64,000 nt of DNA. It comes from Rhizobiaceae bacterium MnEN-MB40S (GTDB lineage: Bacteria; Pseudomonadota; Alphaproteobacteria; Rhizobiales; Rhizobiaceae). This document shows positions 2,616 through 60,730 of this stretch, piece by piece. Position 1 is the stretch's first letter; every line of letters begins with the position of its first letter. The stretch is taken from assembly GCA_024343425.1 (NCBI GenBank), contig BRLC01000025.1, forward strand, positions 372,001-436,000, given 5' to 3'. The notes under the pieces were generated by a model. The model was not told the DNA's origin, made no database searches, and worked only from the letters and a program-made list of their open reading frames with translations. Position numbers and translations under genes: made by a program.

Positions 2616-4055
2616 GTGACAATCGAGAAAAAACAAGATTTTCAGTCATTTGACACCAATGTTACGCAACAGGCTGTTAGCTTTTCGCTGTCCACCGGAT
2701 TCGCCGATGTTCCAGCTGAAGCTCTCGAAATTGCGAAAAGGTGCATGCTCGACACGGTCGGGCTTTATGTTGCGGGTCTGAGTGACGAGGCCACCCGCAT
2801 CGTTGTCTCGATGGCTGCTTCCGACGGCGGGCGCGAGGACGCCTTTCTGCTGGGAGCCGGGCAGAGAAAGGTCCCTGCTCAGGTTGCAGCGCGCGCATTC
2901 GGCATATCCGCCCATGCGCACGATTTTGACGACACGCAGGTAAGCCATGACCCAAACCATGTTTACGGATTACTGACGCACCCGACGACCGCCCCCCTCT
3001 CCTCAGCGCTTTCCGTTTCGCAGATGTTGGGGCATGTGGACGGCGATCGGTTTCTCGCCGCCTTCAACATTGGTTTCGAGGTTTCCTGCAAGATCTCGGA
3101 ATGGCTGAAGCCCGAGCATTATCTGCGCGGGCATCATTCCTCAGGCACCGTGGCGACCTTCGGCGCTGCGACAGCGGCCGCCTGGCTTCTGGAACTCAAC
3201 GAAACGGAGATGCGCCACGCGCTTGGCCTTGCCGCAAGCATGGCCGCAGGTGTGAGATGCAGCTTCGGCACGATGGCCAAACCGTGGCATGTCGGACGCG
3301 CATCGGAAAACGGAGTCCTGGCCGCCTTGATGGCGAAGCGCGGCTTCACCGCCGATCCGGAAGCTCTGGACGGCAAATGGGGTTTCGCAGCTGTGCTCGC
3401 CAACGGCTTTTCGCTTGAAAAACTGGATCAGGGGATGGGACGGACCTGGTCGATTCTCGATCCCGGCGTCAGCATCAAGCCCTACCCCAGCGGGATCCTC
3501 ACCCACCAGGCCATGGACATGGTCCGCAAGCTTGTCATCGACAATGACGTCTCGCCCGAAAACGTCGACAGGATCGAATTCTTCGCCGGCGACAACATCC
3601 TGAATCCGATCCGCTACGCCGTCGCAAAAAATGGCCTCCAGGCGAAATTTTCAATGGCCGCGTTGATTTCAATGCTGGTTCTGCACCGAAACGCCGGCCT
3701 TCCGGAATTCGAGGACGATGTCGTCTGCGCGCCAGCCTTCCAGGAGATGCAAAAACGGATATCAACAGCGGTCGATCCGCAAATCAACGCCAGGGGCTTT
3801 GATCTGATTCGTTCTCGGGTCGTGTTCCATCTGAAGGATGGAGGACGCCTGGAAGCGGAGGCCGACACGCGCTATCGCGGCGGACCGCTGCTCCCCATGA
3901 GCGACGCCGATCTCGAAGAAAAATTCCGCGCGTGTTGCGCAGTTCTCGATGTCGAGAGCCAGGACCGGCTGATCGCTTCCGTGCGCGCCATCGGCCAGCC
4001 GGACGGTCCTCGCCGGCTTGCCGAAACGCTCACGGAAATCCCGGCGGTCGTCTGA
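2616..4055 (+). CDS. MmgE/PrpD family protein
   Basis: A 479-residue protein of the MmgE/PrpD superfamily, whose members include 2-methylcitrate dehydratase, cis-aconitate decarboxylase and many uncharacterised lyases or isomerases. Characteristic segments are AKRCMLDTVGLYVAGL near residue 42, AHDFDDTQVSHDPNHVYG near residue 110, a glycine/serine stretch around GHHSSGTVATFGAA, and a C-terminal YRGGPLLPMSDADLEEKF. The start is GTG at 2616 with AGAGGAAACG about 8 bases upstream. It is divergent from the GntR gene and ends two bases from the convergent M42 peptidase gene. No other methylcitrate-cycle genes are present, so PrpD activity is unlikely; the substrate is unknown. Confidence 0.85.
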   Translation: MTIEKKQDFQSFDTNVTQQAVSFSLSTGFADVPAEALEIAKRCMLDTVGLYVAGLSDEATRIVVSMAASDGGREDAFLLGAGQRKVPAQVAARAFGISAHAHDFDDTQVSHDPNHVYGLLTHPTTAPLSSALSVSQMLGHVDGDRFLAAFNIGFEVSCKISEWLKPEHYLRGHHSSGTVATFGAATAAAWLLELNETEMRHALGLAASMAAGVRCSFGTMAKPWHVGRASENGVLAALMAKRGFTADPEALDGKWGFAAVLANGFSLEKLDQGMGRTWSILDPGVSIKPYPSGILTHQAMDMVRKLVIDNDVSPENVDRIEFFAGDNILNPIRYAVAKNGLQAKFSMAALISMLVLHRNAGLPEFEDDVVCAPAFQEMQKRISTAVDPQINARGFDLIRSRVVFHLKDGGRLEAEADTRYRGGPLLPMSDADLEEKFRACCAVLDVESQDRLIASVRAIGQPDGPRRLAETLTEIPAVV

Positions 4056-56600: not shown

Positions 56601-57422
56601 TTGAAAAAGCTGGCCGATCCCGATACTCAAATAAGACCGTCCGCAACGAAGCTGGTGCCAGCTGTGGAAAGGGCGACGCGAATCCTCGATTATGTTGCGC
56701 GAACAAAAACCTATCCTGGCCTTTCTGATCTGGCCCGAGAACTCGGAGTTGCAAAGAGTTCGGTCCATACTCTATGCCGCACACTTGTCGAGCTCGACCT
56801 TTTGATACGCAGATCGGACCAGACCTACCAGCTCGGACCTCATCTGATGCGTTGGTCAAATGCATTCGCACAACAATCGGACGTTGCAACAGAATTTGCG
56901 TCACTGTGGGACAAGGAAACCGGCATGCCGGGGGCCACGATCACGCTCACTGTTCTGGACGGCGGCGAGGTTGTCTATATCGCAGCCCGCAATTCGGAAG
57001 TCAGCCACTCACTCATAGATTTCCGCGCCGGCATGCGCCTGCCCGCCGCTTTCACGGCGACAGGAAAATCGTTTCTCAGTTTCATGAGCGAGTTCGAGGT
57101 CAAGCGGCTCTATTTAGACGGTCTTCCGCTTCCGCGCACGCCTTATTCTGTGCAATCTATCGACGTTCTCTTGAAGCAACTTCATGAGACCCGTCAGCGC
57201 GGCTACTCGATCGACAATCAGGAGGTCGCGGAAGGAATCATCTGCTTCGGCGCTTCGGTGCTGGATTCTAGGAATATGCCAATCGCGGGCGTCGCCGTTA
57301 GCCTCTTGGCGGAGGAAGTGACCCAAAACGAGCGCGAAGAGATCATTGCCAATATCCGACGGATCGCCACCCGTCTGTCTGCCCGCATGGGCGCAGATCT
57401 GGATCGTGCTAGTTTATCTTGA
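56601..57422 (+). CDS. IclR-family transcriptional regulator
   Basis: A 273-residue regulator with TTG start at 56601 after AAGGTG. The N-terminal HTH domain reads VERATRILDYVARTKTYPGL, DLARELGVAKSSVHTLCRTL and LLIRRSDQTYQLGPHL. The effector domain has GEVVYIAARNS, FTATGKSFLSF and AEGIICFGASVLD, standard IclR features. It is divergent from the 13-gene array, in the same relation as AttJ/BlcR (also IclR family) to the att/blc operon, so a repressor that responds to a 4-hydroxybutyrate-pathway compound is the leading idea. Confidence 0.9.
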   Translation: MKKLADPDTQIRPSATKLVPAVERATRILDYVARTKTYPGLSDLARELGVAKSSVHTLCRTLVELDLLIRRSDQTYQLGPHLMRWSNAFAQQSDVATEFASLWDKETGMPGATITLTVLDGGEVVYIAARNSEVSHSLIDFRAGMRLPAAFTATGKSFLSFMSEFEVKRLYLDGLPLPRTPYSVQSIDVLLKQLHETRQRGYSIDNQEVAEGIICFGASVLDSRNMPIAGVAVSLLAEEVTQNEREEIIANIRRIATRLSARMGADLDRASLS

Positions 57423-57475
57423 CGAGCAAGATCAAGCCCAGCGCTCCCATGTCGGAACAAGAGGTGTGATCAGAA

Positions 57476-58018
57476 AAGGCTCTCGACAGCTTCGACTTCG
57501 ACGCCATCCCGAAGCTGAACAAGATGCAGGTGCTGGAACTGGCGCGCTGTGAATGGATCGAGCGCATGGAGAATACCATCGCGCTCGGCCCCAGCGGCAC
57601 GGGCAAGACCCACGTCGCGCTCGGCCTCGGCTTGGCGGCCTGCCAGAGGGGCCTCTCCGTCGGCTTCACGACGGCGGCCGCACTGGTCAGCGAGATGATG
57701 GAGGCACGTGATGAGCGGCGTCTGCTACGCCTCCAGAAGCAGATGGCCACCTGCCAGTTCCTCATCATCGACGAACTCGGCTTCGTGCCGCTTTCCAAAA
57801 CCGGCGCGGAATTGCTGTTTGAGCTGATCTCGCAGTGTTACGAACGCGGAGCGACTCTGATTACCAGCAATCTGCCCTTTGACGAATGGACGGAAACATT
57901 CGGGTCCGAGCGTCTGACCGGCGCTCTGCTCGACCGCATCACTCACCACGTCAATATCCTCGAAATGAACGGCGAAAGCTACCGCCTCGCTCAAAGCCGC
58001 GCCCGAAAGGCAGGCTGA
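57476..58018 (+). pseudogene. IstB-type ATPase, N-terminally truncated
   Basis: About 180 of the usual 240-270 residues remain. The frame opens KALDSFDFDAIPKLNKMQVL, continues with Walker A TIALGPSGTGKTHVALGLGL, Walker B CQFLIIDELGFVPLSKTGAE and sensor LITSNLPFDEWTETFGSERL, ending RLAQSRARKAG. IstB is the transposition helper of IS21 elements. Without its N-terminus and without IstA the element cannot move by itself. A shorter protein could start at ATG 57524. Confidence 0.85.
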
Positions 58019-58170
58019 AACCCCTCACAAAACGCCGACCCGCAAGCGGGAAACTCTGGCCGTGCTGTGGCGTCGGTGTCTCTTCGTCATGGGGCTCTCC
58101 TTAACAGAACCCCGGCCCGGTCAATATCTCTGTGCTAAACTGTCCACTCCCAGGGGCGCACTCCAACCCT
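57476..58170 (+). mobile_element. IS21-family remnant (3' part of istB plus terminal end)
   Basis: The element begins inside istB near 57476 and ends with the terminal sequence around 58141-58170. No istA gene is present. The terminal 24 bases at 58141-58164 occur again, inverted and with one mismatch, at 22086-22109. It lies only about 50 bases after the IclR gene, so it marks a breakpoint of the accessory block. Confidence 0.78.
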
Positions 58171-58385
58171 GAAGTTTCGGCATTCTTCGCCGCCCACTCA
58201 ATCGCCAAGTCGTCGGCTTGAGTGCGGTAGACGGTTGAGGCGGCCCGCCCGAGGAACGCATTTTCGACGAGCCGCCCGCAGCGCGCCAGATAGGAAAAAC
58301 GCGCTGCCGCTAGGTAGCTGGCGGGCCGGCCAATGGCAACGGCAGCGCCAAACAAAAAGAACGTTTTCGTGGTTTACCGGTACTA
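58171..58385. other. Short stretch between IS21 remnant and IS5-family element
   Basis: No recognisable gene. On the minus strand an open frame reads RPASYLAAARFSYLARCGRL and VYRTQADDLAIEWAAKNAE, which could be a fragment of a host protein cut by both insertion sequences; I do not recognise the family and do not call it a gene. Confidence 0.4.
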
Positions 58386-58453
58386 GGGCGTGGTGACAAT
58401 TTAAGTTTTTGGGATTCCCAAATGTCTGCAAATCAGATTCATATGTGGACGCC

Positions 58454-58686
58454 CCCTATGGCAAGGGTTGATTTTGTCGCGTTGCGTCGATCGGTTGCTT
58501 TCATATGTCCGGCCTGTTTGTGCGGCATTCGCTTGCCGCTGGCCCTGATGGAAATCCGCCGGTGAGGTCCCTGATCAAACTGGCGCGCTTGAGTGGCGCA
58601 TTGAATCAGACGGGTTTGCCTCTCCATTGGCTCGATTGTTACGCATCATCGACTGCCATTGCCAATTCGGTTCGGGCTGCGCGCGG
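58454..58686 (-). ncRNA. Candidate guide RNA (bridge/seekRNA) region of the IS1111-type element
   Basis: IS110-family transposases use an RNA from the element's non-coding end to choose targets, and in the IS1111 group this lies downstream of the transposase gene. Here that end is 233 bases. It contains AAACTGGC (58577-58584) and AATCAGA (58604-58610), identical to the right flank (59786-59793) and left flank (58431-58437) of the insertion. RNA limits and folding were not determined, so this is a candidate only. Confidence 0.45.
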
Positions 58687-59706
58687 TCAGGCGGGCTGCC
58701 CGTAGGGTCTATAGGTCTCTCCGCGGGTGAGGATTGCCCAGGCGATGCGGGCGAGCTTGTTCGCAAGGGCGACGGAGGCGAGCCGGAACGGCTTCTTCTC
58801 CAGTAACCCATTCACCCAGTCTGTCATCGGCGTCGGGTTACGCTTGGCGTGTCTCATGACTGCCGTTGCGCCAACGACGAGCAGTCGCCGCAAATACCTG
58901 TCTCCCCGCTTGGATATGCCACCGAGACGTGTTTTACCTCCTGTCGACTGTTGCTGCGGCGTCAGCCCAAGCCAGGCAGCGAATTGCCTGCCTGATTGGA
59001 ATTGACCGGGGTCTGTCACTGTCGCCGCGATGGCTGTCGCTGTGATCACCCCGACACCCGGGATGGCCGCGAGCCTTCGACTGACCTCGTTCTCGGCATG
59101 CCAGATACGTAATTCCTGATCGAGTTCGCCGATCTCCTCGGTTAACTCGGTGATCCGTCGGATCAAGATCTCAAGCGCTCGATGAGCGTAAGCAGGAAGA
59201 GCTTCATAGGCAAAGGCCCTGTCGGCCAGCTTCATCAGATTGGCGATACCAGGATTGGCGACCAACCCGAATTCGGCCAGGTGCGCGCGCAACGCATTCG
59301 CCGCCATGGTCCGCTGGCGCACAATCAGCGATCGGGTTCGGTGCGCCACCAGAACACTCTGCTGCTCGACTGTCTTTACCGGCACAAACCGCATGGTCGG
59401 ACGTTGCACGGCCTCGCAGATCGCTTCTGCATCAATCGCATCGCTCTTGCCCCACTTGATGTAGCCTTTTACGTAAGACGGCGGCATGATCCTGACGTCA
59501 TGGCCCATGGCGATCAGCGTACGCGCCCAGTGATGCGCCGTCGCGCACGCCTCAACTCCGATCAGACAGGGCGCCAGCTTCGAGAAGAATGGCAGCATTT
59601 GTTTGCGATGCAGCTTCTTCACCAGCACCGTCTTGCCGGATGCATCTATCCCATGCGCCTGGAAAACGCTCTTTGCCAGATCTAGCCCGAGTGTTGTGAT
59701 GTTCAT
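58687..59706 (-). CDS. IS110-family (IS1111-type) transposase
   Basis: A 339-residue RuvC-like recombinase that appears complete. N-terminal DEDD residues: Asp in LGLDLAKSVFQAHGI, Glu in CLIGVEACATAHHWA, and Asp pair in GKSDAIDAEAICEAV. The C-terminal transposase domain has RRLAAIPGVGVITATAIAAT, FAAWLGLTPQQQSTGGKTRL and GISKRGDRYLRRLLVVGA, with the catalytic Ser region STGGK. ATG at 59706 is followed by NITTLGLDL. It is likely still active and guided by RNA from the element. Confidence 0.93.
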   Translation of the reverse strand: MNITTLGLDLAKSVFQAHGIDASGKTVLVKKLHRKQMLPFFSKLAPCLIGVEACATAHHWARTLIAMGHDVRIMPPSYVKGYIKWGKSDAIDAEAICEAVQRPTMRFVPVKTVEQQSVLVAHRTRSLIVRQRTMAANALRAHLAEFGLVANPGIANLMKLADRAFAYEALPAYAHRALEILIRRITELTEEIGELDQELRIWHAENEVSRRLAAIPGVGVITATAIAATVTDPGQFQSGRQFAAWLGLTPQQQSTGGKTRLGGISKRGDRYLRRLLVVGATAVMRHAKRNPTPMTDWVNGLLEKKPFRLASVALANKLARIAWAILTRGETYRPYGQPA

Positions 59707-59808
59707 TGGAACCTTCCTTTCCTGCTTTCGATTCTTTCACAGCATCATACCTGGTGCTGCGCTGGCAGGGGCGTCCACATCATCAAAACTGGCTTTTGGA
59801 GGTCAGTG

Positions 59809-60081
59809 ATGGATTGCGATGCGCTTCGGGATGATCAGTGGGAACGGATCAAGGCCTTTGTGCCCGGCGGAACCAAAGGCAAACGAGGTCCGCGCACGAA
59901 CAACCGGCTTTTCCTTGATGCGCTGTTATGGATGGCCCGGGCGGGCGGGGGCTGGCGTGATCTACCCGAGCGGCTGGGTGATTATCGCTCGGTGAAACGG
60001 TGCTATTACCGCTGGATCGAGATGGGCGTGCTCGACGATATGCTGTCGGTTCTGGCGCGTGAAGCCGACCTCGAGTGGTAA
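59809..60081 (+). CDS. IS5-family transposase, OrfA part
   Basis: About 90 residues: MDCDALRDDQWERIKAFVPG, GKRGPRTNNRLFLDALLWMA, GGGWRDLPERLGDYRSVKRC and YYRWIEMGVLDDML, the DUF4096-type N-terminal domain of IS5-family transposases. Its stop overlaps the next start (TAATG), so OrfB is expected to be expressed by frameshifting or coupling. The ORF itself is undamaged but its partner is not. Confidence 0.85.
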   Translation: MDCDALRDDQWERIKAFVPGGTKGKRGPRTNNRLFLDALLWMARAGGGWRDLPERLGDYRSVKRCYYRWIEMGVLDDMLSVLAREADLEW

Positions 60082-60568
60082 TGATCGACAGCACCATCGT
60101 GCGCGCCCATCAGCATGCGGCCGGCGCTTGTAAGGAAAAAGGTGGGCGGATGCCCAGGGCCTGGGTCGGTCTCGCGGCGGGTTGAGCACGAAAATCCATG
60201 CTGCCACGGAAGCGCTCGGACTGCCGATACGCCCGATCGGCACGCCCGGACAGCGTAACGACATCGCCTTGGCTCACGACCTTGTCGAGGGCATCGAAGC
60301 CGATGCCATGCTGGCCGACAAAGGCTACGATGCCGATCATCTCGTCGCTAGGATCGTAGAAACAGGCATGGAAGTGATCATTCCGCCTAAACGCGATCGC
60401 AAGGCTCAACGTCCATACGACGCCGAACTCTAAAGGGAGCGAAACCGCATCGAGCGCTTCTTCAATAAACTCAAACAATTCCGACGCGTTGCAACCCGAT
60501 ACGACAAGCTCCTCGCCAACTTCATGGGCTTCGTCAAACTTGCCGCTATCGCAATCTGGCTCAAATAG
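60081..60568 (+). pseudogene. IS5-family transposase OrfB, frameshifted and with premature stop
   Basis: From ATG 60081 the frame reads MIDSTIVRAHQHAAGACKEK (first DDE Asp) and is then lost near 60150; the next frame gives GLSTKIHAATEALGLPIRPI, the second Asp region EADAMLADKGYDADHLV, and IIPPKRDRKAQRPYDAEL. TAA at 60431-60433 then replaces the Tyr codon usual before KERN, after which RNRIERFFNKLKQFRRVATR (with the final Glu) continues to TAG at 60568. Two lesions make it inactive. Confidence 0.87.
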
Positions 60569-60730
60569 TTAATTCGTCACCACGCCCTAACACCTCTTTG
60601 TGCGCCCAGACTGGTCATCGAGTAGGACGGCATCTTTTTCTGAAAACAGACATTGCAGTTGCCTGCCCGGAAGGTGAATGTCAGGGCGTTAGGCGCCTGC
60701 GGTTTCTCGTCCGGCCCTTCCTCAGAAAAC

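What the first reader, a model, noticed from the sequence alone, without database searches (positions are those of the whole stretch)
58454..58686. IS1111-type guide-RNA region carries words matching its own insertion flanks
The non-coding end of the intact IS110-type element contains AAACTGGC and AATCAGA, 20 bases apart. The same words flank the insertion on the right and left. By rough estimate both matching by chance in 233 bases is uncommon. This would agree with RNA-guided targeting of the IS5-family end.
Basis: partly seen in the sequence, partly recalled or inferred. Interest (0 to 1): 0.6.

Follow-up and report, generated by a model that had tools for sequence, protein, structure and literature searches.

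The report
RNA-guided jumping gene inside another
A bacterial jumping gene (IS1111 type) carries a short RNA whose guide stretches match the place where it has landed, inside another jumping gene; relatives with different guides sit at correspondingly different sites, so the aiming is real, but this kind of mechanism is already known.

Summary
An intact 1,344-bp IS1111-type element (58442-59785, minus strand; 339-aa transposase, 11-bp subterminal repeats, 7/3-bp extensions) sits without duplication in an IS5-family element. Relatives give the real test. The non-coding end encodes a conserved RNA (14 of 19 pairs change on both sides in 41 elements) with a target loop: its 5' strand TCTGATTCA is the complement of the right target half, its 3' strand CAGTT, just before TGAT, equals the left half. 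Across relatives both strands follow the element's own flanks: right 7.2/9 versus 4.85 shuffled (20 elements), left 4.48/6 versus 2.02 (25 guide types), 0 of 20000 shuffles each. Another RNA stretch follows the element's own right end. This is RNA-guided insertion as published for IS1111 seekRNAs/bridge RNAs: a new member of a known kind. Less ordinary: in this copy the left guide matches 8 nt only one base out of the usual register, and close relatives mostly sit in leaders of IS5/IS630-type elements (19 of 30 scanned).

The parts
58442..59785 (-). IS1111-type insertion sequence (1,344 bp); in IS sense TGATGAT-GTGGACGCCCC ... GGGGCGTCCAC-ATA
   Evidence: sequence; end positions agree with uninterrupted sites in L103 and L002
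58687..59706 (-). transposase, 339 aa, DEDD/IS110 type
   Evidence: Pfam, NCBIfam NF033542, solved ISCro4 and IS621 relatives by sequence
59768..59778 (-). left subterminal inverted repeat GTGGACGCCCC (IS sense)
   Evidence: sequence
58445..58455 (-). right subterminal inverted repeat (perfect 11 bp)
   Evidence: sequence
59779..59785 (-). 7-bp left terminal extension TGATGAT
   Evidence: sequence; conserved among relatives
58442..58444 (-). 3-bp right terminal extension ATA
   Evidence: sequence; conserved or varying with the RNA donor strand
58540..58643 (-). target-binding domain of the guide RNA (covariance model R1)
   Evidence: R1 match 128.7 bits; structure
58602..58610 (-). right-half guide, RNA TCTGATTCA, complement of TGAATCAGA
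   Evidence: covariation with right flanks
   Evidence: covariation with left flanks
58500..58508 (-). donor strand of the RNA, ACATATGAA, equal to right end plus core
   Evidence: covariation with right ends
59786..59793 (-). left half of the target, GCCAGTTT in IS sense
   Evidence: uninterrupted site in L103
58433..58441 (-). right half of the target, TGAATCTGA in IS sense (8 of 9 bases fit the guide)
58386..58441 (+). left tip and leader of the IS5-family element that was hit
   Evidence: tip sequence and its inverted match near 60569-60586; empty relatives
59786..60588 (+). remainder of the IS5-family element (transposase frame interrupted)
   Evidence: Pfam DUF4096 and DDE_Tnp_1, NCBIfam IS5 below its cut-off

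Best explanation
This is an IS1111-type insertion sequence whose 3' non-coding end encodes a guide RNA used by its transposase. In the RNA's target loop the 5' strand pairs with the top strand of the right half of the target (TGAATC...), and the 3' strand pairs with the bottom strand of the left half (...CAGNT). A further RNA strand pairs with the element's own right end and core. This sent the element into the leader between the left tip and the transposase start of an IS5-family element. Shown here: the anatomy, insertion without duplication, a conserved RNA structure, and covariation of both target guides and of the right-end donor strand with each element's own DNA. Inferred: that the RNA is made and bound in this organism, the order of steps (circle, then insertion), and that the one-base-shifted left match is tolerated, for example by one bulged target base.
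For: Right guide versus own flank 7.47/9, shuffled 5.12 (30 guide types); one element per distinct 6-base right flank 7.2 versus 4.85 (n=20); left guide 4.48/6 versus 2.02 (25 guide types), diverged elements only 4.56 versus 1.89 (n=16), close clade 3.76 versus 3.00 (25 distinct pairs); 0 of 20000 shuffles each; still 0 of 20000 without five rows handled by eye. Strand order as published for IS1111 seekRNAs. RNA structure: 91.7% of cells paired, covariation 0.401 versus 0.167, 0 of 500. Right-end donor strand 4.96/5 versus 4.06, 0 of 20000. Uninterrupted sites in L103 and, in the same genome, L002.
Against: In the window copy itself the left guide fits only 3 of 6 in the usual register and the right guide has one mismatch in 9. 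Some relatives fit poorly: right side 5 of 9 in L112, L110, L050 and L132; own right flank is the single best of 20 for only 10 of 20 elements. The left-end donor guide was not established (16 matches versus 12.6, 2881 of 20000 shuffles reach it). Single-sequence folding of the window RNA is no better than shuffles. No expression or transposition data.
Confidence: 0.92

Rival explanations
1. Guided by the right half and core only: in this copy the 8-nt left match (GCCAGTTT) is largely inherited similarity or chance, and the RNA's left guide played little part.
For: Canonical left fit is 3 of 6, close to the clade's shuffled mean of 3.00. Copies with identical guides sit at left flanks CATCT, CACCT and CGACT (L099, L100, L101). 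A single flank with an 8-base match in any orientation arises in 545 of 5000 random draws.
Against: Left guides vary with left flanks strongly in diverged elements and weakly but clearly within the clade. L004 shows the same one-base shift with 5 of 6.
Confidence: 0.3
2. The transposase protein, not an RNA, recognises the site, and the RNA resemblance is a by-product.
For: Close relatives share both transposase and the TGAATC target, so within the clade the two cannot be separated on the right side.
Against: Guide loops follow the flanks across diverged elements with opposite strand sense on the two sides. Published deletion of the non-coding region in ISEc11 abolishes movement.
Confidence: 0.03
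3. The word matches are chance; the site was chosen for other reasons.
For: The raw words are matched as well by 104 of 5000 random flank pairs.
Against: The matches lie in fixed loop positions of a conserved RNA and recur with different letters in relatives.
Confidence: 0.02

Closest known systems
IS1111-family seekRNA elements (ISEc11, ISKpn4, ISPa11; Siddiquee et al. 2024, PMC11187229)
   Same: Downstream non-coding region, subterminal repeats, 7/3-bp extensions, no duplication, guide order top-strand complement then bottom-strand complement (read).
   Different: Other target (IS5-family leader). The left match of this copy is one base out of register. A donor strand following the right end was tested here; in the parts and passages of that paper that I saw it is not described.
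Bridge RNAs of the IS110 family including the IS1111 group (Durrant et al. 2024, PMC11208160)
   Same: RNA with target and donor guides; they predict a bridge RNA in the right end of IS1111 elements, 93.0% of those in ISfinder.
   Different: IS621-type bridge RNAs lie at the left end with a simple donor loop. Here the RNA is at the right end and only the right-end donor strand is supported.
IS4321/IS5075 (recalled; seen only as a cited title)
   Same: IS1111-family elements that target the ends of other transposable elements (Tn21 terminal repeats).
   Different: Here the target lies 56 bp inside the tip, between tip and transposase start, in IS5- and IS630-type elements.

Membership tests
IS1111 family | DEDD/IS110-type transposase of about 330-350 aa | tested here: met
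   339 aa; Pfam and NCBIfam
IS1111 family | Subterminal inverted repeats of 11-13 bp with 7-bp left and 3-bp right extensions | tested here: met
   GTGGACGCCCC, TGATGAT, ATA
IS1111 family | Long non-coding region downstream of the transposase gene | tested here: met
   58442-58686, 245 bp after the stop codon
IS1111 family | No target duplication | tested here: met
   Uninterrupted sites in related IS5 elements L103 and L002
IS1111 seekRNA | Guide order: complement of top strand, then complement of bottom strand | tested here: met
   order from PMC11187229
IS1111 seekRNA | RNA of about 70-150 nt co-purifies with the transposase and is needed for movement | not testable with these tools
   Needs experiment
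Bridge RNA (bispecific) | Guide for the element's own right end | tested here: met
   4.96/5 versus 4.06 shuffled, 25 distinct elements, 0 of 20000
Bridge RNA (bispecific) | Guide for the element's own left end | tested here: inconclusive
   16 matches versus 12.6 shuffled, 22 elements, 2881 of 20000 reach it
IS110 group (IS621-like) | RNA and long non-coding region upstream of the transposase gene | tested here: not met
   RNA is downstream, at the right end
A named ISfinder element | Nucleotide identity to a catalogued IS | not tested
   ISfinder was not available

The most novel reading that the evidence does not exclude
A lineage of alphaproteobacterial IS1111 elements has become a guided parasite of other insertion sequences. 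Its right guide stays on a TGAATC motif shared by the leaders of two unrelated IS families (IS5 and IS630 types), while its left guide drifts and tolerates a one-base slip, so one RNA can hit many different IS ends just upstream of their transposase genes. The donor strand of the RNA also reads the first bases of the right flank, so retargeting would need a matched change there.
Probability: 0.35. Interest if true: 0.55.

Novelty: new member of a known kind. Interest (0 to 1): 0.4.

Why it matters
It gives a natural set of 60 tabulated IS1111 elements in one RNA scaffold with many different guides, from which guide length and register can be read (left about 5 nt, right about 8 nt, donor right end 5 nt plus core). 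It shows guided insertion aimed at other mobile elements. A tolerated one-base slip and a weak left half would bear on the specificity of IS1111-based gene-insertion tools.

Tried and rejected
Rfam scan of 57400-60600: 0 matches at E up to 1. Single-sequence fold of the window RNA: 56 of 200 shuffles fold at least as well, so comparative folding was used. Phage collection: no match to the non-coding end; viral contigs gave one locus. Further copies in the window's own genome (79% complete): none found at E up to 0.001. That the extra T of the left flank arose after insertion was rejected, because the uninterrupted site in L103 already has that spacing. A left-end donor guide was not established. 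A first regex misplaced the donor strand in several rows and was replaced. In the right-flank table the first right end of L062 was replaced by the last of its four tandem right ends, chosen by eye, and entries of L048 and L115 were mended; the ends of L113 and L114 also had special handling. The tests were repeated without these five. The donor test kept the first right end of L062. Literature searches for an IS1111 element aimed at IS5/IS630 ends listed three papers and one paper that I did not open; most subscription papers are not held, so absence from print is not shown.

Full report
Observation. AAACTGGC (58577) and AATCAGA (58604) are in the non-coding end and recur at 59786 and 58431 beside the insertion. 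Random pairs of 20-base stretches match the 233 bases as well in 104 of 5000 draws in the same orientation, 381 of 5000 in any orientation. The words alone are a hint, not evidence.

Anatomy. In IS sense (minus strand) the element starts TGATGAT-GTGGACGCCCC and ends GGGGCGTCCAC-ATA, 58442-59785. The 339-aa transposase matches DEDD_Tnp_IS110 and Transposase_20, NCBIfam 'IS110 family RNA-guided transposase' and, by sequence, the solved ISCro4 and IS621 transposases. It splits an IS5-family element (DUF4096 and DDE_Tnp_1 pieces; tips). Related IS5 elements show the uninterrupted site: L103 (Agrobacterium plasmid) reads CAGTTTTGAATCTGATTTGC in IS1111 sense, and L002, in the window's own genome, CAGTGTTGAATCTGATTTGC. 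The window's flanks are GCCAGTTT and TGAATCTGATTTGC, so nothing was duplicated. A search of the own genome for CAGNNTTGAATCWGATT found only the L002 site.

RNA. An alignment of 21 non-coding ends, the window's included (transposase identity 67-100% where one was matched), gives a consensus with an internal loop between CCC and GGG around an inner hairpin. [quoted passage not shown] On 41 elements 91.7% of cells pair, 14 of 19 pairs change on both sides, and the covariation score is 0.401 versus 0.167 shuffled, 0 of 500. That alignment was fitted to the model, which favours it; slid versions score 0.03-0.08. One outer helix is weak (67.5% of cells). In the window RNA the 5' loop strand holds TCTGATTCA and the 3' strand is CCAGTTTGATCA.

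Guides and flanks. Sixty elements were tabulated; 52 have a right flank, 45 a left flank with a guide. The RNA 5' strand was compared with the complement of the first 9 right-flank bases (best of 12 offsets, the same freedom in the shuffles), and the last 6 bases before the conserved TGAT with the last 6 left-flank bases. Right: 7.47 versus 5.12 shuffled over 30 guide types; one element per distinct 6-base right flank, 7.2 versus 4.85, n=20. Left: 4.48 versus 2.02 over 25 guide types; diverged elements only, 4.56 versus 1.89, n=16; close clade, 3.76 versus 3.00, 25 distinct pairs. None of 20000 shuffles reached any of these. Without the five rows handled by eye: right 7.0 versus 5.03 (n=17), left 4.27 versus 2.04 (n=22), 0 of 20000 each. 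Shuffling does not model relatedness; one element per guide type or per flank only reduces that problem. Orientation controls: same-strand right flank 5.2 versus 4.73 (4 of 5000 reach it), complement of the left flank 1.12 versus 1.30 (4344 of 5000). Positions that count are -5 to -1 and about +3 to +8. Examples: L117 RNA TCTGACTCA and CAAAAC, flanks CAAAAC|TGAGTCAGA; L114 RNA CCTGCACCA and TGGTT, flanks TGGTT|TGGTGCAGG; L058 RNA TCTGACGCA and GAGAA, flanks GAGAA|TGCGTCAGA. Poor fits on the right, 5 of 9: L112, L110, L050, L132. The own right flank is the single best of 20 for 10 of 20 elements.

The window copy. The right guide fits 8 of 9. In the close clade the shifted register is better in 4 of 25 pairs (L001, L004, L022, L095). 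The uninterrupted sites already have this spacing, and the loops of most close relatives have the same length. A bulged target base, or a left half that matters little here, would explain it; this is inference.

Donor side. RNA ACATATGAA (58500-58508) equals the right end plus core. Relatives with ACACATG, ATAGATG, ATACATG, ACAGAAG, ACAGATG and ATACGTG at the right end carry the same variant in the RNA. Five right-end bases: 4.96 of 5 versus 4.06 shuffled, 0 of 20000, 25 distinct of 32 elements listed; core 1.92 versus 1.78 (67 of 20000); flank positions +3 to +5: 1.52 versus 1.15 (37 of 20000). The left-end counterpart was not significant: 16 versus 12.6 matches, 2881 of 20000.

Targets of the clade. 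Of 37 close-clade loci with a left end, one is the window and 30 of the other 36 had the ORF beside the left flank scanned with Pfam. Eight gave DUF4096 (IS5 type). Eleven gave HTH_Tnp_IS630, HTH_Tnp_Tc3_2 or DDE_3 (IS630 type), five of these (L003, L011, L021, L097, L099) only below Pfam's curated cut-off for those families. So 19 of 30 at E up to 0.001. L015 and L020 gave generic helix-turn-helix or similar families only; L014, L024, L028 and L102 none, though their frames look IS5-like by eye; L101 gave a TrbE family, L023 GmrSD_N; L010, L013 and L094 none. The window itself is IS5 type. The loci came from transposase or element searches, not chosen by flank.

Known work. Siddiquee et al. 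2024 (PMC11187229; parts 1-3 of 9 and search passages seen) showed that IS1111 seekRNAs guide insertion, with top-strand then bottom-strand complement, 7/3 extensions, no duplication, and natural redirection (ISEc11/ISXne4). Durrant et al. 2024 (PMC11208160; one section and passages seen) predicted bridge RNAs in 93.0% of IS1111 elements, with donor nucleotides often in a multi-loop. The present element fits both.

Noticed in passing
L015, about 3566-3720: An IS5-type element tip interrupts the guide-RNA gene of this IS1111 copy; the intruding element itself carries an uninterrupted target (TCTGATTCAAGACTGC). In L057 the guide-RNA sequence also runs into an IS5-like tip.
   Followed up: partly
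L062, about 2757-2840: The right end is present as four tandem copies of a 24-bp unit; only the last is followed by a flank that fits the guide.
   Followed up: partly
L120, about 606 and 2012 (IS sense): An inverted copy of the left end lies on the right side, and a stretch like a right target half (TGACCCCCT) lies left of the left flank, suggesting repeated or rearranged insertion.
   Followed up: no
window 59806-60433: The transposase of the interrupted IS5-family element is present only as separate ORF pieces.
   Followed up: no
window 57524-58018: An IS21-type IstB ATPase ORF (164 aa) matching only the C-terminal part of the family lies left of the IS5 element.
   Followed up: no
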